From: Parietaria judaica
Lineage: Eukaryota; Streptophyta; Magnoliopsida; Rosales; Urticaceae
Length of the DNA: 64,000 nucleotides
Assembly (NCBI GenBank): GCA_954871525.1
Contig: OX940867.1
Span: 16,469,343 to 16,533,342, forward strand
Reading direction: 5' to 3'
Positions 5,334 through 42,481 of the stretch are shown here, piece by piece. Position numbers and translations under genes: made by a program. Position 1 is the first letter of the stretch; every line of letters begins with the position of its first letter. The notes under the pieces are model-generated. The model was not told the origin of the DNA and did no database searches. It was given only the letters and a program-made list of their open reading frames with translations.

Positions 5334-5526
5334 AAGAGACTGTTGGCAAAGGGCGAAGCCGATTTGCGAGTAGCTAGTGGAGCACTTGTTGCGGTGGCTG
5401 TTGGAAAGATCGACTTGAAGACGCCAACCAAGTTAATCTTAGAGTTGAATGATTGTAATTACGTATCTTAATTTCTATTCCAGATTTTGATGTTTTATGT
5501 TTTAACTTCACTACTGGAGACAAGCG
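5334..5526 (+). pseudogene. protease remnant of copia element C
   Basis: Continues the frame of the gag/protease broken at 2726: RLLAKGEADLRVASGALVAV is the stretch found downstream of the DSG site in copia proteases, followed by LILELNDCNYVS and a stop (5469-5471). It is bounded by solo LTR F on the left and solo LTR E on the right. Joining 2726 to 5334 and 5526 to 7665 restores the copia order, which is the main reason to assign it to C. Confidence 0.65.
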
Positions 5527-12100: not shown

Positions 12101-14724
12101 TGTTGGACATGTGTGCTTAAACAAGTTGTCTTTTCCTTAATTGTAAAAGATTTTGACCAAAGTCGTTGAATAAAAGATGTTACTTATTATGTTAATCTTA
12201 TTATAATATTTGGTAGAGTAAAATAGAATGTTTGTTCCATAGTTCATAAAGGATGCAATTATGTTATTATTATCACAACCGAGTCAATGTGAGGAAGAAT
12301 TAATAATCATAACAAATGAACTTAAAATGTTCGTGACTTGATTAACTGGGTGAGAGCCCATTAATCGTGTAAGGTCATTAATGTGACTAAGTGATAATCC
12401 TATTCTGGATTAAGTGTGTGTGTCACACTCACTAGAAGTGCATTAAGTATGAAGCGGCTTCATACTGGACTAGACCTGACTTAAACTCCGGAAGTTGTTA
12501 TATAAGACCGTCACTGACAACTTGAAGTTGAGTCACTAGTAGATGATCAAATGGATATTCAATCTAAGTCCTGAGTGACCTCGAGCCTGGACTGTTGACT
12601 TGATTGTTCTTTGATTTAACTGTTAAAGAACACATTTTACTGTCGTTCCCAATGCTGCTAATTGGGGAACATGATAGTCAACAGATAAGGGTAGCTTGGT
12701 TATAGACACGGACATCACATAGCTCTCTTCAGAGTCAAGATGATTCCCTTGATTGTTAGTGGTGAGAAGTGAGAGGTACCCGTGCGCAACTTATGAATCG
12801 AAACCATGAGTGGGTTACTCACAATATTACTAACTGAGTTGAGGATGAAAATGCATTGAGAGGCAAAACGGTAAAAACCGCCTGCTTATGTGTGGATCAT
12901 CAAGTGAAAGATCAATAACCCGAATTTGATTGTATCAATGGACACCTTGCTATAAATGGAATAATATATATTGTATCACTAAAGAGTGCAGCCTCGGGTT
13001 TATAGTGGAATAACACCGAGGTTTGACGAACCACTAGCAATTCGTTGGAGCTTCAGTGATACGGGTCCATGGTCCCCAGAATAGCTCCGGAACGGATGAT
13101 ATGTACGTGATTTAAACATTCCGTATGTTTTATCATTTGTCAGGATTCATAAAACTAGAGTCCGTGTTAGACTTTGGAAGTTTTATTTTTGACGTGGCAA
13201 AAGTACCAAAATTTGGTGCTGGAAATTTAACTGATAAAAGAAAGTTGAATTTAGATTTTTCATCAACTGAATTTTTTTGGAAATTAAATTCTAAGAGACT
13301 TTGCTTTTGGAACTGAGTCATTTCGACGTACGGTTTGTGATTTAGAGAATTTCCAAATTTACGATCGTTTTCGTAAATATGTGAAATTTTATCACATGTC
13401 ACAAATTTAAATGGTGGTGTTGCACCTTGACATTTAATGTGTGATATTGAGATCGGAGGTCAATAAAATAATTTAATTATTAATATTCTTATTAATAATT
13501 ACTTAATAATTAATAGATTTATGTTATTTGATTAAATTGTGTATTTGGTATATACATATGACATTGTAGAAATAATGCGGCCCAAGTAAATGTGTGAGAT
13601 GGGCTTACACGAATTTGCTTGGATTTGGAATTTCCAAATATGCGGCATAAGTACCCATGTTTAGGTATTAATGGAACAACTTGAAATTAATTTAGTTCAT
13701 TAGATCGGTCAAGTTTGATCTTAACCGTTGGATCATGATAATTAATTTAGAAATATAAATTCGAAAATGACTTGGTGACCAAACATGGATTTCGAAAATG
13801 ATTAGTTTAAGATTTAATCTTGACCATTGGATTGGAAATTAATTAACATGTAAATATGGAATGCAAAATTTGAATTTATTATAAAGGGAAGTCGAATTCT
13901 ATTACTTGGTAATCAAGTTTGGAGAATTGACTGTGTCTTAAATCAATATGGTCCATTAGATTGGTTATGGAATTAATTCCATCCATTGGATCAAGCTTAT
14001 TGATTTCGAATTTACCATATGGGTACATAGGGAATTCGAATTCTCTTATATAAGGAAGTGATTGGATAATTGATTTATTCATTACTTTGAGTAATTAATT
14101 ATATTTACCTATCATAGAATTCGAAATTCAAGGACGGAAACTTCCCTTATTGGTTTTTCCATGAGCCTATAAATACAAGGCTCATTCTACACATTTCACA
14201 CACCTTCCCTAGAGCAAAAATTCGATATCTCTCTCTCTAGAGTCTGCGAATTTCTTAGCCTCTGATCTCTATTTTCTGGTTCGGCTTAGTGAGACGTTGT
14301 TCTCCGAAGGCTTTAAAAGAACCATAAGTTAAAGTTTTTGCGACGGAGTCCTGCCGGCGAAGCCCACGCCTCGGTACAAGGAGTCCAGAAGAATATCCCG
14401 GAAGATCACGGGAGTTTCCCTCAGCATCGGTGAAGCCCTGTCCAGTTCAGAACACGCAGCCGGAATCGTCATCACCTGAGGTACGGCCTTATGCATTGGG
14501 TCAATAAATGCAAACCTTTATTTACAGTTTATTTATTTCCTATAGACTAGATTATTAATAATGAATTTATGAAAAGTTAAATTAGTAATAATTTATCAGA
14601 TCTTGATTTTGGTTATTATACGATGTGCAAATCGTTGAACGGGTAACAAGTTTTTTTCGCTTTAAATATTTTTTTAAATGATACCCGGACTGTTTGACGG
14701 CATAAATCGTGATAATATTTTTTT
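12101..14724 (+). repeat. 5' LTR of element A (3' end eroded)
   Basis: Starts TGTTGGACATGTGTGCTTAA and matches the 3' LTR of A. The promoter box CCTATAAATA is near 14166-14175. The conserved hairpin CCTCGG...CCGAGG is at 12992-13021. The block CCCACGCCTCGGTACAAGGA follows near 14360. The last bases that in other copies end CCAACA, and the primer-binding site, are missing; sequence jumps into the GC-rich leader near 14725, which implies a deletion. Confidence 0.8.
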
Positions 14725-15954
14725 AAATGTTACCCGAATCGGGTATTGGGCCGGGCTGCACTAGGCACCCCAACCCGTGGGGCCACGAAGTGGGGCTACA
14801 CTGCAGCCTCGGGTACTTCGGCCAGGCCTAGGGCACAGGCAAGCCCGAACCAAGGCCATTCGGCCAACGCACGAGCGATCGCCCAGGGCACGTTGCCAAG
14901 GCCCAGCGGACGGGCAGCCCGCGTAAACCGTGGCCCAGCCCAGCGCGCTGTCCCTAGCAGCGACGTTGGCCTGCGGGCCCGTGCCAAGGGCACGCTGCCC
15001 TGGCAGCCCCGTGGGCCTTCGTGGCCCAGCCCGTGGGGAATCCGCGGGCATGTGGGCCCGGGCTTAAGCCCGATTAGCCCACGTGCTTAATTTTATGTTA
15101 TAGGTAGAATTTCTAAACCCGACCCAAATATCCATGGATTAATTAATTTTATTTTTGAATTAATTTTTATGAATTAAATTAATTATGTTTGATTAATTAA
15201 TTAATTAAAATATGGATGTTATTTTTGGTAAATAACATTGTCTTATTTTAAATAAAATATGGATGTTATTTTTGGTAAATAACATTGTCTTATTTTTCGA
15301 GTTCATAATTTAAAAATATGGTTGATAATTCTTTCAAGAAAAATATCATTGTCTTATTTTTAATTTTCATAAATAATTATTAATGGGCTAATTATGTGAA
15401 TAATAATTCTTAGAGAATAAGTATCATTGACATATAATTATAAATTCATCATAGATATAATTTTTTAAACCTATTTTCATATTTCTTGAAACATAGTGTC
15501 TATGTTAAGGTCATTATTAATATGTCGGTATAGAATAGATATAAATAATGAACTATAAATAAGATTTATTTGTTATTAGTCGGAAAAATTTCAAACGTAC
15601 AATCTTGCATAAGGAAGAATGAATCAAAAGTGGGGCCGGTTCACCATCCACTTCTGGGTGACCGGTTAGGACCTCTCCTATCGACCTGGAGAGCGTACGA
15701 TTTGATCAATCATTACCGACGAAGTAATAAATAAATGACTAGGCTTATTAGATATTACCCCGGTAATTATAACGCCTTAAGATAAACGTTTCTAATTTGT
15801 GTCGTTAAATGGAGTTTATAATAAGTTTTTATAACTTAAGAAATTAAAAACGTTATTTTCTAAAACAATGGCAAGTATAGAATATCTTGAAATGGTCTCC
15901 ATTATTACTGTCATATGGTCTGCTGACCACACTGCCTCGAGTCACCTTAGTGTG
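14725..15954 (+). other. leader of element A, first part
   Basis: GC-rich low-complexity stretch at 14740-15075, then AT-rich DNA including a repeated block TATGGATGTTATTTTTGGTA (15212 and 15258). The same leader blocks as in B follow: GGGGCCGGTTCACCATCCAC at 15634 and TCTGCTGACCACACTGCCTC at 15919. The open frames in the GC-rich part are compositional artefacts on both strands. The leader stops at GTGTG, the target duplication of element B, and resumes at 26467. Confidence 0.75.
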
Positions 15955-18692
15955 TGTTGGACATGTGTGTCCTTAAACAAGATATTTTATCCCTTTGTAA
16001 AAGATTATGACAAGTCGTTGAATAAAGATGATGCTTATTATGATAATCTTATTATAGTTTCCGGTAGAGTAAAATAGAATGTTTGATTCCTTAGTTCATG
16101 AAGGATGCAATTATGTTATTATTATCACAACAGAGTCAATGTGAGGAAGAATTAATAATCATAATAAATGAACTTAAAACGTCCGTGACCTGATCAACTG
16201 GGTGGGAGCCCATTAATCGTATAAGGTCATTAATGTGACTAAGTGATAATCCTATTCTGGATTTTGTGTGTGTCACACTCACTAGAAGTGCATTAAGTAT
16301 GAAGTGTCTTCATACTAGACTGGACCTGACTTAAACTCCGGAAGTCATCATATAAGACCGTCACTGATAACTTGGAGTTGAGTCACTAGTAGATGATCAA
16401 ATGGATATTCGATCTAAGTCCTGAGTGATCTTGAGTCCAAGCTGCTGACTTGATTGTTCTTTGATTTAACCGTTAAAGAACACGAAATATTACAGCTGTT
16501 CCCAACACTATTATTTTGGGAACATGAGAGTCAGCAGTAAGGGTAGCTTGGTCATAGACATGGGCATCACACAGCTCTCCTTAGAGTGATGATGATTCCC
16601 TTGATTGTCGGTGGTGAGAAGTGAGAGATACCCATGCGCAACTTATGAATCGAAACCATAAGTGGGTTACTCATGATATTGCTGACTGAGTCAAGGAAGT
16701 AAATACAATGAGGGGCATAACGGTAAAAACCGCCTGCTCATTTATGAATCATCAAGTGAAAGATCAATAACCCGAATTTGATTGTATCAATGGACACCCT
16801 GCTATTATAAAGGGAATAATATATACCGTATCACTAAAGAGTGCAGCCTCGGGTCTATAGTGGAATCACTTCGAGGTTTGACGAACAACTAGCAGTTCGT
16901 TGGAGCTTAAGTGATACGGGTCCATGGTCCCCAGGATAGCTCCGTAACGGATGATACGTACGTGATTAAAATACATTCTGGATAATGTTTAATCATTTGG
17001 CTTGACTTATAAAACTGAAAGGTCTGTGTCAGACATCAGATAGTTTTATCGTTGGCGTGGCAAAAGTATCATATTTTGGTACACGAAATTAACTGACAAA
17101 AAGAAAGTTAGAATTTAGATTTTCTATCAGCATCATCTTGTTGGAACTTAAATTCTAAGCAACTTTGCTTTTTGAACCAAGTCATTTCGACTTACGGTTA
17201 GTGATTTATGGATTTTCTAAGTTTGTGATCGGTTCGATAAACTTTGAAATTAAATCACATGTCACGAATTTAAATGATGGTGTGGCACCATGACATTTTT
17301 ATGTGTGATAGTGAGATCAGGATTTATTAATATAATTTAATTATTTGGATTTAATTATTAATATCTTATTAATAATTAATTAATAATTAATAGATTTATA
17401 TTAATAAATGAATATATATAATTATATATATTAATATGTGTAAATTCGAATTAGGGTTTGTCATATGAAACCCTAGTTAAATTCGAATAGCTTGATTTGG
17501 TATTTCTATATTTGCGGCATAAGTACCAAATGTTTTGGTACTTTGGCAAATCCCTAAAATCAATATTATCCATTGGATCGGTTATGATTTAGTATCAACC
17601 GTTGGATTAGGATATTGATGAATTCGAAATTAATAACTTGGTGACCAAGTTTTATTTTTCGAATTTGATTAATCAATTATATCCGTTGGATCGGTCTAAG
17701 ATTTAATCTATACCGTCGGATTAAGAATTGATTAATTATATATATATATATATATCTATATATATTCGAATTAGGTTTATGTATAAATTCGAAAAAATTG
17801 TTTTAATAAATTAATTTATCCTAAACTTATTTGATCCATTAGATCGGTTTTAAGAATCATCTCAACCGTTGGATCTAGATAATAATGATTCGAATTATAT
17901 ATATATATATATCATAATTCGAATTTTATGATGATAAGAAGATAAGATTGGATTTTTGATTTATCTAAATCTTTCTTATTTAATTAAATCCCTAATTAAT
18001 TATATCCATTGGATTTAGATGAGATTAAATCTGGACCATTGGATTGAGATAATTAATTATATTTAATTAATGAAATTCGAATTTAGGGAGGGAATATCTC
18101 CAAATCGGTTACAGTCTTGAGCCTATAAATAGGGAGCTCATTCTACACATTTTCACACCTTTCCCCAGAGAAAAATTCGAACTCTCCCTCTCCTTCAGGG
18201 TCTGCGAATTTTCTCTCTGATCTCTTCTTCTGGTTCGGCTTAGGAGACTATTTCTCCGGAAGCTTAAAAAGAACCATCAGTTAAAGTTTTGCGACGGAGT
18301 CCTGCCGGCGAAGCCCACGCTTCGGTACGAGGATTCCAGGAGAATATCCCGGAATATCACGGGAGATTCCCTCAGCAACGGCGGAGCCCTGCCCGACTCA
18401 GAGTGCGCAGCCGAAATCGCCAAACGAGGTACGGCCTTATGCATTGGGTTAATAAATGCAAACATTTACTGCTTTCTATTTATTTCCTATTATGACTAGT
18501 TTATTAATAATGAGTTATGAATTTAAATTGCATAATATTTATCAGATCTTGGGATATGGTTATTATCCGATATTCGGACCGTTGTTTGGATAACAAGTTT
18601 TCCTCTTTAAAATAATTTTTTAAATGTTACCCTGACGGTTCGGACGTATAAATCGTGATAATTATACGGAATCCGAGACGTGATTTCCAACA
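15955..18692 (+). repeat. 5' LTR of element B, 2738 bp
   Basis: TG...CA ended (TGTTGGACATGTGTGTCC ... GATTTCCAACA). It contains the stem-loop CCTCGG...TCGAGG at 16847-16876, several (TA)n tracts (about 17410, 17735, 17900), and repeated ATCCATTGGATCGGT / CAACCGTTGGAT modules between 17565 and 18050. A TATA box is at 18122-18132, followed by a CT-rich transcribed leader. It is much longer than usual copia LTRs (a few hundred bp). Confidence 0.93.
18122..18132 (+). promoter_or_regulatory. LTR promoter TATA box of element B
   Basis: CCTATAAATAG sits in the 5' LTR about 570 bp before its end, followed 30-40 bp downstream by CATTCTACACATTTTCACAC, a plausible transcription start region. The same box occurs in the other family LTRs (about 14166, 25894 and 32069) and, diverged, in E and D. 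Confidence 0.7.
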
Positions 18693-18694
18693 AT

Positions 18695-18707
18695 TGGTAT
18701 CAGAGCC
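18695..18707 (+). other. primer-binding site (tRNA-iMet type) of element B
   Basis: TGGTATCAGAGCC follows the 5' LTR end after two bases (AT). This is the standard plant copia primer-binding site, complementary to the 3' end of initiator methionine tRNA, and it primes minus-strand DNA synthesis. It sets the LTR boundary at 18692. Confidence 0.92.
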
Positions 18708-20344
18708 ATTGTTCAAGGATAAATAATTACGTAATTTAATTGAAGGGTTTAAAGAACAAATTATTTGATGAATAAATTAATAATTAAAATTGAAATTTAT
18801 TTCTGGAAATTTTAATATTAATTTAATTAATTCCCGACCCGAAAAATCGGACCGGTAAAATGGCCGGGCTGCTAGGCGCAGCCCAGCCCGTGGCAAGGGC
18901 TAACCAGGGGCTGCCGCAGCAGCCCCAGGGTCAGAACCCTAATCGCCACGGGCCAGGCCCGTAGCGAAGCCTACGCCAGGGCGAGGCCCAGGGCGAGACC
19001 CTTGCGGGTTGCCCTGGCGCGCAGCGCCTGGGCCTCGCGCCCTGGCTGCGGCCTACGCTGTCTGGCAGCGGAATGGGCCTCGCGCCCTGGGTGCGGCCCA
19101 CGCTGCCTGGCAGCGGAATGGGCCTCGCGCCCTGGCAGCAGCCCACGCTGCTTGGCAGCGGAATGGGCCTGCTGGCCCAGCGCGAGGTGGGCGCTGCCCT
19201 GGCCCTCTTCGGCTGGTTGGGCGTGGCCTCTCCTAGGGATGTGGGCCCGGGCTTAGGCCCGGAGGGCCCACGTACATAATTTTTAATTATGGGTCGGAAT
19301 TTATTCCGACCCGGATCCCTAGAAATAATTAATTATATTCATCATAGATATAATTTATTATAACCTATTTTCATAACCCTTAAACATAGAGTCTATGTTT
19401 GGATCATTATTAATATGTCATATTTAGGATAGATATAAATAATAAAGAGTAAATGTAAATGTGTTTTATTATGAGTCGGAAAAATTTCAATCGTACAATC
19501 TTGCCTAAGGAAGAGGGAATCAAAAGTGGGGCCGGTTCACCATCCACTTCTGGGTGACCGGTTAGGACCCCTCCCATCAACCTGGAGAGCGTACGAATTG
19601 ATCTATCACTACCGACAAAATAATAAACACAATAAAATGGGATTATTTAATTACGTGACGTAATAAATAAATCCGAAATAAACCATTAATGTGTCATTAA
19701 TAGTTTATATATTAAGTTTTTATAACTTAGTATAAGAAATAAAAAATGTTATCTCCCAAAAACAATGGCAAGTATAGAATACATTAAAGGTCTCCATTAT
19801 TACTAACACAAGGTCTGCTGACCACACCGCCTCGAGTCACCCTAGTGTGTCCATTCCCTAAGGAAGGTGTGCTTGTGGGAGGTTTGACAACGTGATAGCT
19901 CCAAAAGAATATGGGGACGGAGGAATCTTGGAAATGGACCGCGAGTCACCCTAGTGTGACCATTCCCTAAGGACGACTTTTCCAAGAGGATCCCGAGAAC
20001 CAAAAATAATGGGTTAAGCTTGCACGGAAGTTGGTGCTTCCTGACCGTCTATGGTGATAGTTAATAATCATAGAGAACTTGGTGGTTCTTGTTATGAATA
20101 TTAATTAAGTTTATGACTAAAACTTAGTTTAACCAAACTACACGGTTGACACCGCGAGTCACCCTAGAGTGACCATGCCACTAAGGACGGCAACGACGTG
20201 TACAGTCAGTTAAATTATCACGAAATAGTTAAAGGGTTTATTTAACGTTTTACCCAGAACATGTTTGCATCATGTAACTATTTCAAATAAAATATTTTTC
20301 TAAAACATTCTACCTATAATAAAGTTTAATAAGTTTCTTTTTCA
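18708..20344 (+). other. untranslated leader of element B
   Basis: About 1.6 kb between the primer-binding site and the first ATG used. GC-rich part 18840-19275, then blocks shared with A (GGGGCCGGTTCACCATCCAC at 19530; TCTGCTGACCACACCGCCTC at 19813) and several copies of a GAGTCACCCTAG(T/A)GTGACCAT word near 19834, 19942 and 20157. The capsid part of gag expected in this area is absent. Confidence 0.7.
19030..19170 (+). repeat. 45-bp tandem repeat in the leader of element B
   Basis: Three copies of a 45-bp unit begin at 19030, 19075 and 19120 with GGGCCTCGCGCCCTGG, and a partial fourth starts at 19165. The unit length is a multiple of three, so it yields a spurious repetitive peptide (WASRPGCGLRCLAAE-like). 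The GC-rich setting in untranslated leader argues against coding. Confidence 0.85.
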
Positions 20345-23300
20345 ATGCCAGTTAAGATGTCTTTCGACAAACAAGAAATGGAAAAGTCTACTCTGACGCT
20401 GATGTCTCAAAATCAAAGCAATCTGGTAAAAGTCACAAAATCCCTTAGCAAGCTGGCCATGAGTGGATCTTTGGAAAAACTTGGAATGGCAGATCAGAAT
20501 GCTATAAACTCTTTGAACAAGAGGAAGAGAATCATTGGAAACCAGGAAGAATTCTTCCAGATTGGGAGTACAAGTAATGTTGATCGTTCAACATTAGAAA
20601 TATGTTTCGTGGACAGCTCATCCTTCAACTGGATCTTAGATTCAGGAGCAAACGATCATGCGTGCAATTCTCTTCAGTCTCTTGACAAATTGGAAGAGAT
20701 AAATGATGGGCCAACTTTGAAAGTGGGAAACGGGGAATTTCTACAAGCAAAGGCGGTAGGAAATTTGCGACTGACATTTGGAAATAAGTATTTATTTGTT
20801 GATAATGTGTACTATTATCCAAATGTCTGCAGAAATATACTTTCTGCTTATCTGTTGTACAAACAAGGTTATACTCTAAACTTTCGTGGATCCCATTGGG
20901 TCATCACAAAGGATGGAGTATATATTTGTACTGCTAAAGCAGAAAACGGATTATACATCCTAAGACCAGATTATGGTAGCTGTATGAATACTGAGATGTT
21001 TAAACTGGCAGTGCCGAAGTCAATTAAGAAACCCTAAATTGACAATGATGTTCAAACGTACCTGTGGCATTTAAGATTGGGTCATATTAATCTAGAAAGG
21101 ATAAACAGGCTGGTAAAGGATGGACCCCTTAAAGAAGTAACAATCGGTTCTTTGCCTGTTTGTGAATCCTGTATAGAGGCTAAAATGACCAAAAGACCTT
21201 TCTCGATGAAAGGTCAAAGAGCCACTAAACCATTAGAACTCGTCCATTATGATGCATGTGGTCCCATGAACATACAAGGAAGGGGAGGAATTGAATACTT
21301 TGTCACCTTTATTGACGATTATTCAAGATATGGTTACGTTTATCTCATGGCCAAGAAATCTGAAACCTTGGATAAGTTCAGAGAATTTCTGGCAGAATCT
21401 GAGAATCAACTAGGACTGTCATTAAAGTCTCTTCGATCTGATCGAGGGAGAGAATACCTAGATCATGAGTTTTGCGACCTATTGATCGAGAAAGGTATAA
21501 CATCTCAACTAACTGCTCCTGGCACACCAGAACAAAATGGTGTTGCAGAAAGGAGAAATAGGACCTTATTGGAAATGGTAAGGTCGATGTTAAGTTATTC
21601 ATCGCTACCCAATTCATTCTGGGGATATGCTTTGTTGACGGCTACAAACATTCTGAATGTTGTGCCATCAAAGTCTGTTTCTAAAACACCCGTCGAATTA
21701 TGGAATGGCAGAATACCAAGTCTGCGACATTACAGAATTTGGGGATGTCCTGCACATGTGCGGACTGGAAACAAAAATAAATTGGAATCACGAACGGAAG
21801 TTTGTCTGTTCGTAGGATATTCCAAAGAGACTAAAGGAGGTTTGTTTTATAGTCCAGAAAGTAAGAAAGTATTTGTCTCGACAAATGCTACCTTTCTGGA
21901 ACAAGATTATATGACAAACTTCAAACCTCGAAGTAAAGTTATACTCGAGGAACTGTCAGGTGACAAGGTCACAATATCTCCAACAGTGACTGTTGTCGAA
22001 GATATAGTAGAAACCACGGTCCCAAATCAGAACCAAGGGGTACTCAGACGTAGTGGGAGGTTCAAAAGACCTGTTGAGCGCTACGAGCACACCCAGTTGG
22101 AATTTCACCTAGCTGTCACGGACACTAGTGTTGAAGATCCCATAGGCTACAAACAAGCTATGGAGGATCCTGATAAGGGAGAATGGCAGGAAGCCATGAA
22201 CCAAGAAATAAAATCTATGGATTCTAATGAAGTCTGGGAACTTGTAGACTTACCGGATGGTTTCAAAACCATTGGCTGTAAGTGGGTATACAAGCGAAAG
22301 AGAGGGGTGGACGGGAAGGTTGAAACCTTCAAGGCTAGACTAGTGGCAAAGGGTTTTACCCAGAGGGAAGGTATTGATTTCGATGAAACCTTCGCTCCAG
22401 TCGCTAAGTTCAAGTCCATACGGATTCTCATGGCCATAGCCTGTAGTCTCAATTATGAGATTTGGCAGATGGACGTCAAAACCGCATTCCTGAACGGGTA
22501 CATTGACGAAAACATCTATATGGACCAACCAGAGGGGTTCGTGCTACAGGGTCAAGAAGGGAAAGTTTGTAGATTACTTAAATCCATTTATGGATTAAAG
22601 CAAGCTTCCAGATCCTGGAATCTGAGGTTTGATGAAACCATCAAAACCTATGGATTCATTCAAAATGTCACTAAGGCCTGCATTTATAAACTCAATGACG
22701 AAACCGTGGAAATTTTTCTTGTTCTGTACGTCGACGATATTCTTCTCATTGGAAACAGTGTGAAGAAGCTATCAGACGTAAAAGCGTGGCTATCTACGCA
22801 ATTCCAAATGAAGGACATGGGAGAAGCCAGCTATGTTCTTGGGATCCGTATATTCAGGGATCGCAACAACAGGCTTCTAGCCTTATCGCAAGCAACTTAC
22901 ATTGATAAGGTGCTTGAACGTTTTGCAATGGCAAACTCCAAGGGAGGTAATTTACCAACCAGACATGGAGTATTCCTTAGTAGGAAACAATGCCCAACTT
23001 CTCCGGAAGAGCAAGACGTGATGAGAAGGATACCCTATGCTTCAGCAGTGGGAAGTCTGATGTACGCTATGCAGTGTACTAGGCCAGACATCTGTTACGC
23101 TGTGGGAATTGTTAGCAGATATCAATCCAACCCTTGTATGGCTCACTGGACTGCAGTGAAGAACATTCTCAAGTATCTTCGGAGAACGAGAAACTATATG
23201 TTAGTGATTTCAGGATCAGAACTGAATCCACTAGGATACACTAATTCAGACTTTACGTCTGATAGAGACGCGAGAAAATCGACGTCAGGAGCAGTGTACA

Positions 23301-23713
23301 CCCTTGCTGGTGGAGCGATATTCTGGAAAAGCATAAAGCAATCCTGTATCGCAGATTCCACCATGGAAGCTGAATACGTGGCAGCCTGTGAGGCAGCCAA
23401 AGAATCAGTTTGGCTCAAGAATTTCTACATAGAACTGGGAGTTGTTCCAGATGTAGATGGGCCCCAAACACTATACTGTGACAACAGTGGTGCGGTGGCA
23501 AATTCTAAAGAGCCCAGAGACCATAACAAGGCAAAACATATAGAACGCAAATACCATCTCATAAGAGAGATAGTGCGTCGTGGCGACGTAAGGGTTGTGA
23601 AAATAGCTTCGGAAGACAATCTGGCTGATCCATTCACCAAGACGTTGCCAGAGAAAATATTCAGGAGGCATCTGGAGAATATGGGTCTGAAAGACATGGG
23701 TCATCTTCTTTAA
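20345..23713 (+). CDS. copia Pol of element B: protease, integrase, RT, RNase H
   Basis: One frame of 1122 codons plus stop, with a single in-frame TAA at 21035-21037. It starts at ATGCCAGTTAAGATG. A short gag residue is followed by protease (WILDSGANDHACN, active-site D99-S-G). After the TAA come the HHCC zinc region (LWHLRLGHIN ... CESC), the integrase core with HYDACGP, RSDRGREY and NGVAERRN carrying the D,D,E triad, and the C-terminal GKNK-like region. RT has IGCKWVYKRKRG, DVKTAFLNG, YGLKQAS and an intact YVDD (LVLYVDDILLIG). RNase H has CDNSGAV and a tail ending KTLPEK. The capsid domain and zinc knuckle of Gag are absent. Apart from the one stop, which could be suppressed or be a late mutation, the enzymes look functional. 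Confidence 0.93.
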
Positions 23714-23715
23714 GT

Positions 23716-23728
23716 ACAAGTGGGAGAT
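23716..23728 (+). other. polypurine tract of element B
   Basis: ACAAGTGGGAGAT lies just after the pol stop and directly before the 3' LTR start TGTTGG at 23729. Purine-rich tracts at this place prime plus-strand DNA synthesis. The same word precedes the 3' LTRs of A (about 29857) and C (about 34579). Confidence 0.8.
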
Positions 23729-26466
23729 TGTTGGACATGTGTGTCCTTAAACAAGATATTTTATCCCTTTGTAAAAGATTATGACAAGTCGTTGAATAAA
23801 GATGATGCTTATTATGATAATCTTATTATAGTTTCCGGTAGAGTAAAATAGAATGTTTGATTCCTTAGTTCATGAAGGATGCAATTATGTTATTATTATC
23901 ACAACAGAGTCAATGTGAGGAAGAATTAATAATCATAATAAATGAACTTAAAACGTCCGTGACCTGATCAACTGGGTGGGAGCCCATTAATCGTATAAGG
24001 TCATTAATGTGACTAAGTGATAATCCTATTCTGGATTTTGTGTGTGTCACACTCACTAGAAGTGCATTAAGTATGAAGTGTCTTCGTACTGGACTGGACC
24101 TGACTTAAACTCCGGAAGTCATCATATAAGACCGTCACTGATAACTTGGAGTTGAGTCACTAGTAGATGATCAAATGGATATTCGATCTAAGTCCTGAGT
24201 GATCTTGAGTCCAAGCTGCTGACTTGATTGTTCTTTGATTTAACCGTTAAAGAACACGAAATATTACAGCTGTTCCCAACACTATTATTTTGGGAACATG
24301 AGAGTCAGCAGTAAGGGTAGCTTGGTCATAGACATGGGCATCACACAGCTCTCCTTAGAGTGATGATGATTCCCTTAATTGTCGGTGGTGAGAAGTGAGA
24401 GATACCCATGCGCAACTTATGAATCGAAACCATAAGTGGGTTACTCATGATATTGCTGACTGAGTCAAGGAAGTAAATACAATGAGGGGCATAACGGTAA
24501 AAACCGTCTGCTCATTTATGAATCATCAAGTGAAAGATCAATAACCCGAATTTGATTGTATCAATGGACACCCTGCTATTATAAAGGGAATAATATATAC
24601 CGTATCACTAAAGAGTTCAGCCTCGGGTCTATAGTGGAATCACTTCGAGGTTTGACGAACAACTAGCAGTTCGTTGGAGCTTAAGTGATACGGGTCCATG
24701 GTCCCCAGGATAGCTCCGTAACGGATGATACGTACGTGATTAAAATGCATTCTGGATAATGTTTAATCATTTGGCTTGACTTATAAAACTGAAAGGTCTG
24801 TGTCAGACATCAGATAGTTTTATCGTTGGCGTGGCAAAAGTATCATATTTTGGTACACGAAATTAACTGACAAAAAGAAACTTAGAATTTAGATTTTCTA
24901 TCAGCACCATGTTGTTAGAAATTAAATTCTAAGCAACTTTGCTTTTTGAACCAAGTCATTTCGACTTACGGTTAGTGATTTATGGATTTTCTAAGTTTGT
25001 GATCGGTTCGATAAACTTTGAAATTAAATCACATGTCACGAATTTAAATGATGGTGTGGCACCATGACATTTTTATGTGTGATATTGAGATTAGGATTTA
25101 TTAATATAATTTAATTATTTGGATTTAATTATTAATATCTTATTAATAATTAATTAATAATTAATAGATTTATATTAATAAATGAATATATATATAATTA
25201 TATATATTAATATGTGTAAATTCGAATTAGGGTTTGTCATATGAAACCCTAGTTAAATTCGAATAGCTTGATTTGGTATTTCTATATTTGCGGCATAAGT
25301 ACCAAATGTTTTGGTACTTTGGCAAATCCCTAAAATCAATATTATCCATTGGATCGGTTATGATTTAGTATCAACCGTTGGATTAGGATATTGATGAATT
25401 CGAAATTAATAACTTGGTGACCAAGTTTTATTTTTCGAATTTGATTAATCAATTATATCCGTTGGATCGGTCTAAGATTTAATCTATACCGTCGGATTAA
25501 GAATTGATTAATTATATATATATATATATATATATTCGAATTAGGTTTATGGATAAATTCGAAAAAATTGTTTTAATAAATTAATTTATCCTAAACTTAT
25601 TTGATCCATTAGATCGGTTTTAAGAATCATCTCAACCGTTGGATCTAGATAATAATGATTCGAATTTTATATATATATATATATCATAATTCGAATTTTA
25701 TGATGATAAGAAGATAAGATTGGATTTTTGATTTATCTAAATCTTTCTTATTTAATTAAATCCCTAATTAATTATATCCATTGGATTTAGATGAGATTAA
25801 ATCTGGACCATTGGATTGAGATAATTAATTATATTTAATTAATGAAATTCGAATTTAGGGAGGGAATATCTCCAAATTGGTTACAGTCTTGAGCCTATAA
25901 ATAGGGAGATCATTCTACACATTTTTCACACCTTTCCCCAGAGAAAAATTCGAACTCTCCCTCTCCTTCAGGGTCTGCGAATTTTCTCTCTGATCTCTTC
26001 TTCTGGTTCGGCTTAGGAGACTATTTCTCCGGAAGCTTAAAAAGAACCATCAGTTAAAGTTTTGCGACGGAGTCCTGCCGGCGAAGCCCACGCTTCGGTA
26101 CGAGGATTCCAGGAGAATATCCCGGAAGATCACAGGAGATTCCCTCAGCAACGGCGGAGCCCTGCCCGACTCAGAGTGCGCAGCCGAAATCGCCAAACGA
26201 GGTACGGCCTTATGCATTGGGTTAATAAATGCAAACATTTACTGCTTTCTATTTATTTCCTATTATGACTAGTTTATTAATAATGAGTTATGAATTTTAA
26301 ATTGCATAATATTTATCAGATCTTGGGATATGGTTATTATCCGATATTCGGACCGTTGTTTGGATAACAAGTTTTCCGCTTTAAAATAATTTTTTAAATG
26401 TTACCCTGACGGTTCGGACGTATAAATCGTGATAATTATACGGAATCCGAGACGTGATTTCCAACA
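23729..26466 (+). repeat. 3' LTR of element B, 2738 bp
   Basis: Same length and nearly the same sequence as the 5' LTR. Small differences occur at dinucleotide tracts (for example the TA tracts near 25185 and 25515) and scattered bases. Promoter box near 25894. Ends GATTTCCAACA, followed by target copy GTGTG (26467-26471). Confidence 0.93.
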
Positions 26467-26963
26467 GTGTGTCCATTCCCCAAGGAAGGTGTGCTTGTGG
26501 AAGGTTTGACACCGTGATAGTTCCAAAAGAATAAGGGGACGGAGGAATCTTGGAAATGGACCGCGAGTCACCCTAGTGTGACCATTCCCTAAGGACGACG
26601 TTTCCAAGACTAATCCGAGAACCGAAAATAATGGGTTAAGCTTGCACGAAAGTTGGTGCTTCACTACCGTCTATGGTGATAGTTAATAATCATAGGGAAC
26701 GTTGGTGGTTCTTGTTTTGAATATTAATTAAGTTTATGACTAAAACTTAGTTTAAGCAAACTACACGGTTGATCCTGCTAAGTCACCCTAGAGTAATCAT
26801 TCCCTAAGGACGCCAACGACGTGTACAGTTAGTTAAATTATGACGAAATAGTTAAAGGGTTTAATTAACGTTTTCCCAGAACATGTTTGCATCATGTAAC
26901 TATTTCAAACCTTTTTCCTAAAAACATTCTACCTATAATAAAGTTTAATAAGTTTCTTTTTCA
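26467..26963 (+). other. leader of element A, second part
   Basis: Resumes the A leader after B: GTGTGTCCATTCCCCAAGGA and the GAGTCACCCTAGTGTGACCAT word correspond base for base with 19846 onward in B. It ends at CAATGCCAGTCAATATGTCT, homologous to the start of the B coding region (CAATGCCAGTTAAGATGTCT). Homology with B is lost directly after this point. Confidence 0.8.
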
Positions 26964-27765
26964 ATGCCAGTCAATATGTCTGATCCTGTTTACATTTCGG
27001 ATGGGGAACAAGATTCCGTGAACTCTAATTCACCATTTGATGTTGAGCCGAAAGCAATTTTTGAAGATGACTCTGATTGGTTCAGGTATGACTCTGAGTA
27101 CAAGTTACTCAATCATTACGTTGAACAATATCCTGATAGAAGTCAGTCATTCAAAGACTCGCTGCTCAAGGCTTCAATGAGTGAGATAAAGAGGCTTATG
27201 GGCAAGGTGAATAAAGTAACAAGTCTTGTCACTGAGGCAATGGCTAAAGATAACAAAAGAAAAATTGAATCAATCGCTGAACCGGGAAGAAAGTAAAGAA
27301 AAGTTGGGTTATCGGCAATGTGTTTCAAATATGGAACAAGGAAGAGAGTGCATGGTCAGCTACTTTGTGACAGGCACATCAGTTCAGCAAAGGGTAAAAC
27401 CTTACATGAACTTGTTTTTAGATTTTATTGAAGAGATTTAATCTCAGATCCATAGATTAAAATTCTAATCATTGCAAAATGTTTTTCTCTTTCATAAGTG
27501 GCTTCTGCGAAGGAGAAAAACGGACATGAAGCCTTGTGCATTCAGTGCTGGCTTAAACCTAGGGCAAACATGCATAGAATGTGCCGAGAACATCTGAGGG
27601 CTTGGAGAGGTAAAAACTCTTCTGATAAACCCTATTAGTTTTTATTGGAGAGATAACATCTCAGATCCATAGATTAAAAACACTAATGTTTGTCCACTAT
27701 TTTTCCTTTCAGGTGGCAGCGGGAGCTCTATATATGGGAGCTCAGTAGAGAACGACAGTGACTAG
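26964..27765 (+). CDS. foreign gene-like segment in element A: acidic ORF plus Cys/His repeat exons
   Basis: Occupies the place of gag-protease-integrase in element A. An open frame from ATG 26964 gives an acidic 110-residue N-terminus (MPVNMSDPVYISDGEQDSV...) up to a TAA at 27294-27296. The same frame continues as MCFKYGTRKRVHGQLLCDRH to AAG-G at 27393. A phase-1 intron 27394-27498 (GTAAAA...TAAG), exon 27499-27609 with CIQCWLKPRANMHRMCREH, another phase-1 intron 27610-27712 (GTAAAA...TTTCAG) and exon 27713-27765 then join in frame to a TAG at 27763-27765. The two exon modules have identical spacing, C-x2-C/Y-x11-C-x2-H, and the introns share a 22-bp identical block (27441, 27658). I do not recognise the family. 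I infer a captured cellular gene fragment, now with one in-frame stop. The splice pattern is predicted, not observed. Confidence 0.6.
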
Positions 27766-28113
27766 TACTCGAGCGTCTCCAAAAGAAGGAGTCATTTTTA
27801 TTTAGTCTGTTTTCGATTCTGTTATTGTTAAGTTTGTTTAAGCTATGAATAAACCTCAATTTATTTTTGGATATATTAATTGCATGGAATAATCCTGATA
27901 TCAATAAAGTGTTATCTTTGTTTTGGGTTATGTGCAATATCCAGATAAAAATAATAAGTGACATGTTGTCTTTACCTATAATCTCTGCCTACTCTAAATT
28001 TTGACATGTCAAAAACGTCATTTTTGGTCTTCAAATATTAAAACATAATGATTTTTCTTAGAGTTTGCCATTATTTCACTGCTAAAGAATTATGTGACTT
28101 AGTCACCTAGTCA
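27766..28113 (+). other. putative 3' UTR and flank of the captured segment in element A
   Basis: AT/T-rich sequence after the TAG, with AATAAA at 27848-27853 and 27903-27908, as expected of a plant 3' UTR. No similarity to copia integrase. The junction back into copia sequence is near 28114, where CCAACAGTGCCTGTTGTCGA matches CCAACAGTGACTGTTGTCGA of B (about 21980). Confidence 0.5.
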
Positions 28114-29854
28114 CAGCTTCGCCAACAGTGCCTGTTGTCGAAGAGAGTGCGGAAACCATGGTCCCAAGTCAGAACTCAAGGGTACTCAAACATAGTGGGA
28201 GGTTCAAAAGACCAGTTGAACGCTACGAGCACACCCAGTTAGAGTTTCACCTAGCTGTTACTAACACTAGTGTTGAAGATCCCATAGGCTTTAAGAAAGC
28301 TATGGTTGATACTGATAAAAGGGAATGGCAGGAAGCCATGAACCAAGAAATAGAATCTATGGATTCTAACCAATTTTGGGAACTTGTAGACTTACCGGAT
28401 GGGTTCAAAACCATTGGCTGTAAGTGGATCTACAAGAGAAAGAGAGGAGTGGACGGGAGGGTTGAAACCTTCAAGGCTAGACTAGTGGCAAAGGATTTTA
28501 CCCAAAGAGAAGGTATTGATTTCGATGAGACCTTCGCTATAGTCACTAAGTACAAGTCCATCCGGATTCTCAGGGCCATAGCCTGTAGTCTCAATTATGA
28601 GATTTGGAAGATGGACGTCAAAACCGCCTTCCTAAACGGGTACATTGACGAAAACATCTATATGGACCAACTTGAAGGGTTTGTGCAAAAGGTTCAAGAA
28701 GAGAAAGTTTGCAGATTACTCAAGTCCATTAATGGATTGAAGCAAGCTTCCAAATCTTGGAATCTAAGGTTTGATGAGACTATTAACACCTATGGATTCG
28801 TGCAAAACATCACTGAGGCCTGCATTTATAAGCTCAATGATGATACTGTGGAAATTTTCCTTATTCTATACGTCAATGATATTCTTCTCATTGGTAATAA
28901 TGTGAAAAAGTTATCGGGCGTGAAAGCATGGTTAGCTACACAATTCCAAATGAAGGATATGAGAGAAGCCAACTATGTTCTTGGGATCCGTATCTTTAGG
29001 GATCGCAACAACAGGCTTCTGGCCTTATCACAACCAGCCTACATAGATAAGGTGCTTGATCGTTTTGCAATGGAAAACACCAAGGGAGGTAATTTACCGA
29101 CCAGGCATGGAGTATTCCTCGATAGGAAACAATGCCAACTTCTCCAGAAGAGCAAGACGGGATGAGGCGCATACCCTATGCTTCATTAGTGGGAAGTCTG
29201 ATGTACGCTATGCAGTGTACTAAGCCAGACATCTGTTACGCTGTGGGAATTGTTAGCAGGTACCAATCCAACCTTGGTATGGATCACTGGACAACAGTAA
29301 AGAACATTCTCAAGTATCTTCAGAGAACGAGAGACTATATGTTAGTGTTTTCAGGATCAGAACTGAATCCACTAGGATACACTGACTCGGAATTTACGTC
29401 TAACAGAGACGCGAGAAAATCGACGTCAGGAACAGTGTTCACCCTTGTTGGTGGAGCGATATTCTGGAGAAGCGTTAAGCAATCATGTATCGCAAATTCC
29501 ATAATGGAAGCTGAATATGTGGCAGCCTGTGAGGCAGCCAAAGAATCAGTTTGGCTAAAAAAATTCTAAATAGAGCTGGGAGTAGTTCCAGATGTAGATG
29601 GGCCCCTAACGATGTACTGTGACAACAAGGGCGCGGTGGAAAATTCTAAAGAGCCCAGAGACCATAACAAGGCAAAACATATAGAACGCAAATACCATCT
29701 CATCAGAGAGATAGTACGTCGTGGCGACGTAAGGGTTGTGAAAATAGCTTCGGGAGACAATCTGGCTGATATATTCACCAAGACGTTGCCAGAGAAAATA
29801 TTCAGGAGGCATCTGGAGAGTATGGGTCTGAAAGACATGGGTTATCTTCTTTAA
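28114..29854 (+). pseudogene. Pol remnant of element A: RT and RNase H, broken
   Basis: Closely related to B pol from the post-integrase linker (RFKRPVERYEHTQLEFHLA) through RT to RNase H. Three lesions are visible against B. The RT active site reads YVND rather than YVDD. One C is missing near 29142 (CAATGCCAACTT against CAATGCCCAACTT), shifting the frame. A TAC to TAA change near 29567 stops the frame inside RNase H (KKF-stop-IELG). It ends KTLPEK...GLKDMGYLL like B. Integrase, protease and gag are absent upstream. Non-functional. Confidence 0.9.
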
Positions 29855-29869
29855 GTACAAGTGGGAGAT

Positions 29870-32635
29870 TGTTGGACATGTGTCCTTAAACAAGCTATCA
29901 TTTCCCTAATTGTAAATTTTTTTGACCAAAGTCGTTGAATAAAAGATGTTACTTATTATGTTAATCTTATTATAGTTTCTGGTAAAGTAAAATAGAATGT
30001 TTGTTCCATAGTTCATAAAAGATGCAATTATGTTATTATTATCACAACCGAGTCAATGTGACAAAAAATTAATAATTATAATAAATTAACTTAAAATGTC
30101 CGTGACCAGATTAACTGGGTGGGAGCCCATTAATCGTATAAGGTCATTAATGTGACTAAGTTATAATCCTATATGGATTAAGTGTGTGTGTCACACTCAC
30201 TAGAAGTGCATTAAGTATGAAGCGGCTTCATACTGGACTAAACCTCACTTAAACTCCGGAAGTTGTTATATAAGACTGTCACTGACAACTTGGAGTTGAG
30301 TCACTAGTAGATGATCAAATTGATATTCGATCTAAGTCCTGAGTGACCTCGATAAGGGTAGCTTGGTCATAGACACGGACATCACATAGCTCTCTTCAGA
30401 GTCAAGATGATTCCCTTGATGGTTAGAGGTGAGAAGTGAGAGGTACCCGTGTGCAACTTATGAATCAAAACCATAAGTGGGTTACTCACAATATTACTAG
30501 CTGAGTTGAGGATGAAAATGCAATGAGAGACAAAACGGTAAAAACCGCCTGCTCATGTGTGGATCATCAAGTCAAGGATCAATAACCCGAATTTGATTGT
30601 ATAAATGGACACCTTTCGATAAAGGGAATAATATATACTGTATCAGGAAAGAGTGCAGCCTCGGGTTTATAGTGGAATAACACTGTCAATGGACACCTTT
30701 CTATAAAGGGAATAATATATACTGTATCAGGAAAGAGTGCAGCCTCGGGTTTATAGTGGAATAACACTGAGGTTTGACGAACCAGTAGCAATTCGTTGGA
30801 GCTTCAGTGATACGGGTCAATGGTCCCCAGGATAGCTCCGGAAGGGACGATACATACGTGATTTAAACATTCGTTATGTTTTATCATTTGTCAGGATTCA
30901 CGAAACTAGAGTCTGTGTCAGACTTTGGAAGTTTTATTTTTGACGTTGCAAAAGTACCAAAGTTTGGTGCTTGAAATTTAACTGATAAAAGAAAGTTGAA
31001 TTTAGATTTTTCATCAACTGAAAAGTTTTTGGAAATTAAATTCTAAGAGACTTTTATTTTGGAACCGAGTCATTTCGATGTACGGTTTGTGATTTAGAGA
31101 ATTTCCAAGTTTACGATCGTTTTCGTAAATATGTGAAATTTTATCACATGTCACGAATTTAAATGGTTGTGTTGCACCACGACATTTAATGTGTGATATT
31201 GAGATCGGAGGTCAATATTATAATTTAATTATTTGGATTTCATTATTAATATTCTTATTAATAATTAATTAATAATTAATAGATTTATGTTATTTGATTA
31301 AATTGTGTATTTGGTATATACATATGAATGTGTAGAAATAATGCGGCCCAAGTAAATGTGTTAGATGGGCTTACACGAATTTGCTTGGATTTGGAATTTC
31401 CAAATATGTGGCATAAGTACCTATGTTTAGGTATTAATGGAAAAATTTGAAATTAATTTGGTTCATTAGATCGGTCAAGTTTGATCTTAACCGTTAGATC
31501 ATGATAATTAATTTAGAAAGCTAAATTCGAAAATGACTTGGTGACCAAGCCTGGATTAGTTAATTGCTTAACCATTGGATTGCTTAATTAATTCGAAAAT
31601 TCGAAATTGCTTAATTAATTATATCCATTGGATTAGTTTAAGATTTAATGTTAACCATTGGATTGGAAATTAATTAACATGTAAATATGGAATGCAAAAT
31701 TCAAATTTATTATAAAGGGAGGTCGAATTCTATTACTTGGTAATCAAGTTTGTAGAGTTGACTTGAACTTAAATCAATATGGTCCATTAGATTGGTTATG
31801 GAATGAATTCCAACAATTGGATCAAGCTTATTGATTTCGAATTTACCATATGGGTACATAGGGAATTCGAATTCTCTTATATAAGGAAGTGATTGGATAA
31901 TTGATTTATTCATGGTTTCCCTATTTGGTTAAATCCTTAATTAATTAGAACCATTGGATCTTTGGTGATTCAATCTTGGCCATTGGTTTGAGTACTTAAT
32001 TATATTTACCTATCATAGAATTAGAAATTCAAGGAAGGAAACTTCCCTTATTGGTTTTTCCATGAGCCTATAAATACAAGGCTCATTCTACACATTTCAC
32101 ACACCTTCCCCATAGCAAGAATTCGATATCTCTCTCTCTCTAGAGTCTGCGAATTTCTTAGCCTCTGATCTCTCTTTTCTGGTTCGGCTTAGTGAGACGT
32201 TGTTCTCCGAAAGCTTTAAAAGAACCATAAGTTAAAGTTTTTGCGATGGAGTCTTGCCGGCGACGCCCACGCTTCGGTACGAGGAGTCCAGGAGAATATC
32301 CCGAAAGATCACGGGATTTTCCCTCAGCATCGGCGAAGCCCTGCCCAGTTCAGAACGCGCTGGCGGAATCGTTATCACCTGAGGTACGACCTTATGCATT
32401 GGGTCAATAAATGCAAACCTTTATTTACATTTTATTTATTTCCTATAGACTAGATTATTAATAATAAATTTATGAAAATTTAAATTATCAAATCTTGATT
32501 TTGGTTATTATACGATGTTCAAATCAACGGGTAACAAATTTTTTCTGCTTTAAATATTTTTTTAAATGTTACCCGGACGGTTTGACAGCATAAATCGTGA
32601 TAATATTATGGGGAAATGTAATGAACTTCCTAACA
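29870..32635 (+). repeat. 3' LTR of element A, 2766 bp
   Basis: Starts TGTTGGACATGTGTCC after the polypurine tract and ends ATGAACTTCCTAACA, then target copy TCAAG. Promoter box near 32069. Differs from the 5' LTR by scattered substitutions, lack of some segments (for example near 30350) and an internal 84-bp duplication. Confidence 0.88.
30604..30771 (+). repeat. 84-bp tandem duplication in the 3' LTR of A
   Basis: Two copies with period 84 start AATGGACACCTTTC at 30604 and 30688, each running through GAGTGCAGCCTCGGGTTTAT to ATAACACTG. All other family LTRs here carry one copy. It duplicates the left arm and loop of the conserved hairpin. Confidence 0.9.
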
Positions 32636-32640
32636 TCAAG

Positions 32641-33495
32641 ATCTATAGAGATAGAGCTAAAAGAACATTAGCCCTAAGTCAAAGTACTTACATCGAGAAG
32701 GTTGCAAAACGGTTCAACATGGACCAATCAAAGAATGGTTCCATACCGATGACACATAAGTTGCACCTTTCCCGATCCCAATGCCCAAATCTGGCAGAGG
32801 AAATAGAACACATGAGAAGGTCCCATATGCTTCTGCGATTGGCTCACTAATGTACGCCATGACTTGTACTCGACCGAATATATCATATGCCTTGACCGTA
32901 ACAAGCCGTTATCAAGCAAATCCTGGTGAATGTCATTAGACCGCCGTTAAGAACATTCTGAGGTATTTGAATAGATCCAAAAAAAAAGTGTTTAGTTTTC
33001 GGCGGTGCTGAGCAATTAAGAGTAAGTGGTTACACTGATGCTAGCTTCCAAACCGACCAGGACGATTTCAGGTATCAAATAGGATACGTATTCTGCTTAA
33101 ATGGTGGTGCGATCACTTGGTCTAGTACCAAGCAGTCTACAATAGCTGATTCGACCACTGAGGCCGAGTATATGGTTGTAAGTGAGGCAGCCAAGGGCGC
33201 ATTCTGGATCAAGAATTTCCTTTCTGATCTAGGTGTGATTCCGTGCATAGCTGAGCCAGTTCCACTCTATTGTGAAAAAAACGGAGCCATCACACATGCT
33301 AGAGAGCTCAGATCACCTAAGACGGCAAGACATATACTCAGGAAGTTCCACATCATCCGACAGTTCATCGAGAGAGAGGATGTGGACATCCAGAGGGTTG
33401 ATACAGATGATAACATAGCAGATCCGTTGACGAAAGCTTTGCCTCGCGACAAGAATATCTGTCACACAGAGTCTACATGCATTAGATACCTTTGA
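32641..33495 (+). pseudogene. RT end and RNase H of copia element C
   Basis: Resumes RT after element A: IYRDRAKRTLALSQSTYIEKVAKRFNMDQSKNGSIPM, homologous to the segment after YVDD in B, then a region with a frameshift near 32826-32950, then RNase H with TSTKQSTIADSTTEAEYM, SEAAKGAFWIKNFLSDLG, YCEKNGAI (usual D of CDN changed to E) and IADPLTKALPRDK. With 11840-12100 it completes the pol of C. Dead relic. Confidence 0.87.
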
Positions 33496-42472: not shown

Positions 42473-42481
42473 TTAGATTAA

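What the first reader, a model, noticed from the sequence alone, without database searches (positions are those of the whole stretch)
26980..28113. Captured, intron-bearing gene fragment replaces gag-protease-integrase in copia element A
Homology to sibling B stops just after ATGCCAGTNANNATGTCT and resumes at 28114. Between them lie three putative exons joined by two phase-1 introns (27394-27498 and 27610-27712) that stay in frame to a TAG, followed by two AATAAA signals. Both introns start GTAAAA and share the 22-bp block that begins ATCTCAGATCCATAGATTAA (27441 and 27658). Retained introns point to capture from genomic DNA or unspliced RNA, not from a mature mRNA. Gene capture is known for some plant LTR elements (for example Bs1 in maize), but this cargo is unrecognised.
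Basis: partly seen in the sequence, partly recalled or inferred. Interest (0 to 1): 0.88.

Follow-up and report, generated by a model that had tools for sequence, protein, structure and literature searches.

The report
Retrotransposon split into three complementary parts
The odd insert is not a one-off stolen gene scrap but, it seems, the selected, intron-bearing third gene of a large jumping-gene family whose capsid, enzyme and zinc-finger genes sit on separate elements with the same ends.

Summary
In detail: in copia element A, homology to sibling B stops after ATGTCT (26981) and resumes near 28110; between them lies a three-exon gene with two phase-1 introns. Two corrections. This copy has an in-frame TAA (27294), seen in 2 of 34 copies. 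And the cargo is not unique: in the window's own genome exon 1 has 150 scored matches (cap reached), and 57 of 57 copies read have both introns. Exon dN/dS between subfamilies is 0.16-0.30, so it is a selected element gene: helical N-terminus plus two C-x2-C-x11-C-x2-H fingers, no known family. A leader-plus-ATG pattern occurs 831 times; the first 100 listed places are 53 A-type (zinc-finger gene + RT-RH), 40 B-type (PR-IN-RT-RH, no gag), 6 G-type (gag with its own intron + RT-RH, no PR-IN) and 1 other. All three share LTR, leader, start codon and RT-RH. Best reading: a tripartite LTR retrotransposon with cassettes split over three element types, translated from spliced, early-polyadenylated RNA and replicated from unspliced RNA. 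Not shown: splicing, a host parent gene, absence of a full-length copy (that search did not complete).

The parts
12101..14719 (+). 5' LTR of A, its 3' end and the primer-binding site deleted; TSD TCAAG just before (12096-12100)
   Evidence: 94.2% identical to the 3' LTR
14720..15954 (+). first part of A's leader, up to the insertion of B
15955..26466 (+). element B nested in A: B-type, PR-IN-RT-RH without a gag domain, LTRs 99.3% identical, TSD GTGTG (15950-15954 and 26467-26471)
20345..23713 (+). B-type coding frame (99-aa N-terminus, PR, IN, RT, RH), broken here by one stop at 21035; frames of 1126-1161 aa at 18 of 150 listed matches elsewhere
26467..26963 (+). rest of A's leader; its end is shared by A-, B- and G-type elements
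26964..27393 (+). exon 1: shared start (MPVNMS), acidic then helical N-terminus, finger 1; in-frame TAA at 27294-27296 in this copy
27394..27498 (+). intron 1 (phase 1), stem GAGAT..ATCTC at 27433-27445
27499..27609 (+). exon 2: finger 2 (C-x2-C-x11-C-x2-H)
27610..27712 (+). intron 2 (phase 1), homologous to intron 1, stem at 27650-27662
27713..27765 (+). exon 3 and TAG stop
27766..28109 (+). 3' untranslated part with AATAAA at 27848-27853 and 27903-27908
28110..29869 (+). RT-RNase H region shared by all three types; in this copy the RT active-site box reads YVND and the frame shifts near 29126-29165
29870..32635 (+). 3' LTR of A, followed by TSD TCAAG (32636-32640)

Best explanation
The insert is the third gene of a split copia-type retrotransposon. 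Three element types share LTRs, a long leader, the start codon context (MPVxMS) and the RT-RNase H region, but carry different cassettes in between: G-type gag (with one intron), B-type protease-integrase joined to RT-RH in one frame, A-type a zinc-finger protein (two introns). Each type lacks what another supplies, so they most likely complement each other in trans, and template switching between co-packaged RNAs keeps their shared parts alike. Proteins of the A and G cassettes are probably made from RNA that is spliced and polyadenylated at the cassette's own signals, which cannot be copied because it lacks the 3' LTR. Unspliced full-length RNA is the replication template, so introns persist. 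Shown: shared parts, types, intron retention, selection on the A gene. Inferred: splicing, trans-complementation, and the role of the zinc-finger protein (most likely an RNA-binding helper for export or packaging of unspliced RNA).
For: Both introns in 57 of 57 copies. dN/dS 0.16-0.30 between four subfamilies of intact copies, 0.24 between two groups when all 34 copies of the first set are used, broken ones included; bootstrap upper bounds 0.24-0.57 in six tested pairs. Exon 2, in frame only after splicing, gives 0.18 in the pair L004/L013. 18 of 23 copies keep a complete ORF across both introns (picked set, see Tried and rejected). 831 leader-ATG places against 0 for the reversed pattern; of the first 100, 53 A, 40 B, 6 G, 1 other. 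G-type: Retrotran_gag_2 E 1.5e-18, zinc knuckle, RVT_2 (L091); no PR-IN in 6 of 6; gag intron in 6 of 6. RT of window B lies about 1.3% from that of A-type L057; LTR and RT of the two G-type elements read through are 97-99% identical to B's. Splicing coupled to early polyadenylation is reported for Arabidopsis copia elements (PMC8892269, passages read).
Against: No RNA data. A full-length gag-PR-IN-RT copy was not excluded: the gag search of the genome did not complete, and only 6 G-type copies were examined, 4 of them by their ends only. The 100 classified places are the first listed of 831, from four contigs and with exact matches only. RT-RH in A- and G-type has no obvious start codon and is open over the part read in only 5 of 10 young A-type copies, so part of what they carry may be passive. 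The 3' junction is not the same in one A subfamily (6 of 23 copies) nor in 2 of 6 G-type copies. Gag could also come from an unrelated copia family.
Confidence: 0.62

Rival explanations
1. Ordinary parasitism: a full-length autonomous element exists, and A, B and G are deletion or capture derivatives that it mobilises, as BARE1 is reported to mobilise BARE2. The zinc-finger gene is an added accessory ORF.
For: BARE2 precedent (PMC3735527, abstract). The gag survey did not complete, so a full-length copy is not excluded. One of the 100 places (L105) is of unknown kind.
Against: Of the 100 leader places only 6 begin with gag, and all 6 lack PR-IN. B-type frames of 1126-1161 aa stand at 18 of 150 listed matches and the A-type gene is selected, so both look like working parts.
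Confidence: 0.3
2. On origin, and compatible with the best explanation: host gene capture, then amplification. An ancestral element took a complete host zinc-finger gene, with introns and 3' untranslated region, at its start codon by template switching with unspliced RNA, and the family kept it because it helps the element.
For: Non-gag protein with its own 3' UTR and AATAAA signals; 6-bp overlap ATGTCT at the 5' junction; LTR element gene capture is common (PMC2774510: 425 intact maize elements with gene fragments, passages read).
Against: No parent locus identified outside the elements; one search scored 150 of 450 candidates and cannot reach a more distant parent, so this was not a fair test. 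No accepted Pfam, NCBIfam or PDB relative.
Confidence: 0.5
3. On origin, the alternative: the gene is home-made. It descends from the zinc-knuckle end of the element's own gag, whose finger exon and phase-1 intron were duplicated and diverged.
For: Gag also has a phase-1 intron of 100-103 bases just after its zinc knuckle. Gag intron against intron 1 beats most shuffles (0-15 of 300 reach the score in 12 comparisons) and folds into a stem-loop. One A subfamily and 4 of 6 G-type copies have a like 3' junction.
Against: Profile comparison finds no similarity between the proteins (probability 0.16%); the local alignment is weak (43 to 618 of 2000 shuffles reach it in six copies); gag intron against intron 2 is weaker (6-97 of 300 shuffles).
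Confidence: 0.3
4. Passive cargo: a captured pseudogene carried along without function.
For: The window copy and most copies of the first set of 34 have stops, frameshifts or lost splice sites.
Against: dN/dS well below 1 between all subfamilies; complete frames in 18 of 23 picked copies; both finger motifs complete in 18 of 22 intact proteins.
Confidence: 0.04

Closest known systems
BARE1/BARE2 of barley (PMC3735527, abstract read)
   Same: BARE2 cannot make Gag and is packaged in BARE1 particles; translated and replicated RNA are separate pools
   Different: there one partner is complete; here gag, PR-IN and a third gene lie on three types, none seen complete, and introns split the third gene
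EVADE and other Arabidopsis copia elements with spliced, prematurely terminated shGAG RNA (PMC8892269, passages read)
   Same: intron and early polyadenylation signal next to gag; unspliced RNA is the full-length form
   Different: there gag and pol are on one element; here the arrangement is seen on separate gag and zinc-finger elements
Complementary non-autonomous pararetroviruses of rice, ePVCVL and ePVCVL2 (PMC5491270, passages read), and florendoviruses (PMC4241990, search listing only; bipartite genomes from recall)
   Same: reverse-transcribing elements with complementary defects, kept alike by recombination of shared regulatory sequence
   Different: those are virus-derived and two-part; this is an LTR retrotransposon in three parts
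Additional ORFs of plant LTR retrotransposons (PMC7264820, first of three parts of the text read)
   Same: an extra gene conserved in most copies of a family
   Different: most often between pol and 3' LTR; here it takes the place of gag-PR-IN and has two introns
CERV of Cer1, C. elegans (PMC10309623, abstract read)
   Same: a novel protein from a spliced element RNA, there required for export of unspliced genomic RNA
   Different: no sequence comparison made; function here only inferred
Bs1 of maize and other gene-capturing LTR elements (PMC13317346, PMC2774510, passages read)
   Same: non-element coding sequence between LTRs
   Different: those captures were found as fragments of known host genes; here a complete selected gene with at least 150 matches in one genome, parent unknown

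Membership tests
Ty1/copia LTR retrotransposon | LTRs, 5-bp target duplication, integrase upstream of RT, RVT_2-type RT | tested here: met
   (B has all; A lacks the integrase)
Host-gene-capturing element (Bs1 kind) | parent gene identified outside the element | tested here: inconclusive
   one search is swamped by element copies; protein database switched off
Host-gene-capturing element (Bs1 kind) | capture confined to one or a few copies, without selection | tested here: not met
   150 scored matches; dN/dS 0.16-0.30 between subfamilies
Element with conserved additional ORF | same extra ORF in most copies of the family | tested here: met
   53 of the first 100 of 831 leader places are A-type
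Element with conserved additional ORF | added to an otherwise complete gag-pol element | tested here: not met
   no PR-IN match in L001-L022 or L035-L037 and the cargo stands where gag would start
BARE2-like gag-less parasite (for B-type) | no gag, remaining pol intact | tested here: met
   no gag domain in window B; frames of the same length at 18 of 150 matches
BARE2-like gag-less parasite (for B-type) | complete autonomous partner with the same LTR exists | tested here: inconclusive
   none seen among 100 places; the genome-wide gag search did not complete
Multipartite reverse-transcribing element | complementary genes on separate units with common ends | tested here: met
Multipartite reverse-transcribing element | no unit is complete; units mobilised together | not testable with these tools
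   needs a full gag survey and particle or RNA data
Splicing-coupled early polyadenylation (shGAG kind) | intron and nearby polyadenylation signal, spliced and unspliced RNA both made | tested here: inconclusive
   introns and signals present; RNA not available

The most novel reading that the evidence does not exclude
An obligate tripartite (segmented) LTR retrotransposon: gag, protease-integrase-polymerase and a spliced zinc-finger gene live on three separate element types with common ends, none autonomous, kept together by co-packaging and recombination. The zinc-finger protein may read the stem-loop that its own two introns share, sorting unspliced RNA into replication.
Probability: 0.4. 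Interest if true: 0.95.

Novelty: new variant of a known kind. Interest (0 to 1): 0.86.

Why it matters
Multipartite genomes are known from viruses, and complementary pairs have been proposed for plant pararetroviruses. My two literature searches on the point (1 paper, 8 listed of 410) listed no LTR retrotransposon split into complementary parts; that is a narrow search. If true, plant retrotransposons can evolve division of labour. It would also offer a natural case in which spliceosomal introns survive many rounds of reverse transcription inside a retroelement gene, so how an element sorts RNA for translation and for replication becomes testable.

Tried and rejected
Tried without result: Pfam, NCBIfam, PDB and Rfam for the cargo (Pfam's best were WRC E 0.083 for the window protein, and among six family members GATA 0.06 and a RING model 0.0055 in one member; WRC and GATA fall below Pfam's cut-offs, the RING cut-off was not shown); viral and prokaryote contigs with exon 1 (none); a single-sequence fold of exon 1 (pLDDT 73, pTM 0.31, helices only; no fold search made).

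Considered and rejected: a Helitron or other DNA transposon inserted in A (a weak CTAG|T-like end was noted by eye, but no terminal inverted repeats, and the insert recurs with the same 5' boundary in the family). An extra intron removing the TAA (candidates have exon-like composition or remove coding parts). Short mobile introns (introners) as the cause of the similar introns: the fingers align in the 216-base register, so tandem duplication of a finger exon plus intron is simpler; the introns' low divergence then needs constraint or conversion.

Against my own reading: intron divergence is below dS in 5 of 6 pairs, but in L035/L052 it is higher (ratio 1.68, interval 0.87-3.69). The 216-base register of the exon DNA is only tied best of 360 shifts. 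The 23 copies were all picked from matches without stops in exon 1, and the 3' splice site of intron 2 was chosen there as one that leaves the frame open, so 18 of 23 overstates intactness; in the first set only L004, L023, L012 and L013 of 34 were complete with GT..AG, 4 of the 34 being too partial to score. In that set the splice dinucleotides are not all kept: intron 1 GT is G in 30 and T in 32 of 34, AG is A in 33 and G in 31; intron 2 GT 34 of 34, AG A 33 and G 28. The five-pair stem, G-U pairs counted and the best left arm taken, forms in 51 of 57 first and 52 of 57 second introns by my count, with one clear compensatory change only (GAGAC..GTCTC, 5 copies); the alignment misregisters those rows, so no pair counts were made.

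Full report
Anatomy. Element A runs from 12101 to 32635. Its LTRs are 94.2% identical (K 0.060), it is flanked by TCAAG on both sides, and it interrupts the RT frame of an older copia element. A younger element B (15955-26466, LTRs 99.3% identical, flanked by GTGTG) sits inside A's leader. A's 5' LTR has lost its end and the primer site, presumably after insertion. To the right of B, A's leader continues to the ATG at 26964. Six codons later homology to B ends, to resume at about 28110 in front of RT.

The insert. Three exons (26964-27393, 27499-27609, 27713-27765) join in one frame. The two introns are homologous from GT to AG (79 of 99 bases), far beyond shuffles. Each follows a finger of the form C-x2-C-x11-C-x2-H (in the window copy the second cysteine of finger 1 is a tyrosine). 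The two fingers align without gaps over 31 residues (score 36, reached by none of 100000 shuffles in that register; 4 of 2000 shuffles reach the free local score). This points to tandem duplication of a finger exon with its intron.

It is a family gene. A search of the window's own genome (538.7 Mb in 87 contigs) with the insert gave 43 DNA matches (40 of 387 candidates scored), and with exon 1 protein 150 matches (150 of 450 candidates scored, all E below 1e-33, by my count 129 of 150 without stops inside). I read 57 copies including the window's: 34 from the DNA matches and 23 picked among protein matches without stops. All 57 have both introns, about 95-113 and 96-110 bases long. In the 22 loci of the first set with long flanks the leader lies upstream in 20 and RT downstream in 21; in three loci of the second set, 3 of 3. 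The TAA codon is in 2 of the 34.

Selection. Between four subfamilies of intact copies dN is 0.20-0.31 and dN/dS 0.156 to 0.301; with all 34 copies of the first set, broken ones included, 0.24 between and 0.31-0.38 within two groups. All six bootstrapped pairs lie below 0.6. In the pair L004/L013 exon 2 alone gives 0.18, exon 3 about 1.07 over 13 codons. Introns diverge less than synonymous sites in 5 of 6 pairs, so they too seem constrained or converted. Both introns carry a block like TTATTGGAGAGAT-loop-ATCTCAGATCCATAGATTAAAA; the 5-bp stem persists in most copies and in one subfamily has changed on both sides. A fold of the piece adds an outer stem. Rfam has no match at its cut-offs.

What the protein is. 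192-197 residues: acidic start, long helices (single sequence, low pTM), basic stretch, two fingers, both motifs complete in 18 of 22 intact proteins; in one subfamily the last histidine of finger 2 is cysteine. No family is recognised.

The other types. The leader end with its ATG (28 bases, up to 2 mismatches) occurs 831 times, the reversed control never. Of the 100 places listed (contigs C1, C3, C4, C5, all exact matches), I matched 61 by eye with the A matches and the B matches and read the remaining 39: 53 A, 40 B, 6 G, 1 unclear. B-type: 150 of 361 candidates scored, 18 of the 150 with an open frame of 1126-1161 aa (one of them also listed with a stop), the length of the window B frame, in which PR, IN, RT and RH but no gag domain were found. 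G-type: a 282-aa Gag (L091: Retrotran_gag_2 E 1.5e-18, zinc knuckle E 3.6e-6), a 100-103 base GT..AG intron right after the knuckle in 6 of 6 copies, a 3' untranslated stretch, then the RT-RH frame; no PR-IN in 6 of 6. In two of the six the whole stretch was read (L090, L091); in four only the gag end and the RT junction, whose spacing leaves no room for PR-IN. LTR and RT of L090 and L091 are 97-99% identical to window B's.

Modules mix. In the RT tree window B is nearest to the A-type copy L057 (path about 1.3%), while A-type subfamilies differ by up to 10% in RT and by dS near 1 or more in the cargo. RT between two A groups has dN/dS 0.27, and 10 of 10 young A-type RT pieces keep the YVDD box, 5 of 10 open over the part read. 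This is what recombination between co-packaged RNAs would give.

Mechanism. A and G cassettes are built alike: start codon of the leader, ORF with phase-1 intron(s) after a zinc-binding unit, 3' untranslated part (AATAAA signals in A-type), then RT-RH. Arabidopsis copia elements make a spliced, prematurely polyadenylated gag RNA and keep unspliced RNA mostly nuclear (PMC8892269, passages), and barley BARE has separate pools for translation and replication (PMC3735527, abstract). By analogy the spliced RNA here ends before the 3' LTR and cannot be copied, which would explain why introns survive. This is inference; no RNA was available.

Origin. Either a host gene caught at its ATG (6-bp overlap ATGTCT) or a descendant of the gag end. 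The intron similarity (intron 1 mainly) favours the second weakly; the proteins do not. The 3' junction GTGAC..GTCAC is shared by most A-type copies and 4 of 6 G-type copies, but is missing in A subfamily g3 (L035, L037, L045, L046, L049, L052) and in G-type L116 and L117. Open.

Limits. The gag survey needed to exclude a full-length partner did not complete. The interpretation of a three-part system therefore rests on 100 of 831 places.

Noticed in passing
27394-27498 and 27610-27712, and the same introns in other copies: Introns diverge more slowly than synonymous exon sites between subfamilies (K/dS 0.14-0.38 in 5 of 6 pairs), with a shared stem-loop; one close pair goes the other way.
   Followed up: partly
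L035 (G000:C21:9491700-9500900): Tandem A-type elements with a 7512-bp period; three matches at this spacing.
   Followed up: no
window 41479-42475: Near-perfect palindrome, two 492-base arms 96% complementary with 13 bases between.
   Followed up: no
window 2943-5334 (minus strand): Fragmented LTR-like stretches of the same family in reverse orientation, about 68-87% identical in their parts.
   Followed up: no
window 18860-19270 and 14740-15080: GC-rich, repetitive stretch in the otherwise AT-rich leaders of B and A.
   Followed up: no
window 11855-12100 and 32641-33500: Older copia RT and RNase H frame interrupted by A at its TCAAG target; triple nesting of copia elements.
   Followed up: partly
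L014 near the start of exon 1: An A-type copy with a duplication of about 90 bases over the first codons of the cargo.
   Followed up: no
L105 (G000:C4:46992302-46992480): Leader and ATG followed by sequence of none of the three types.
   Followed up: no
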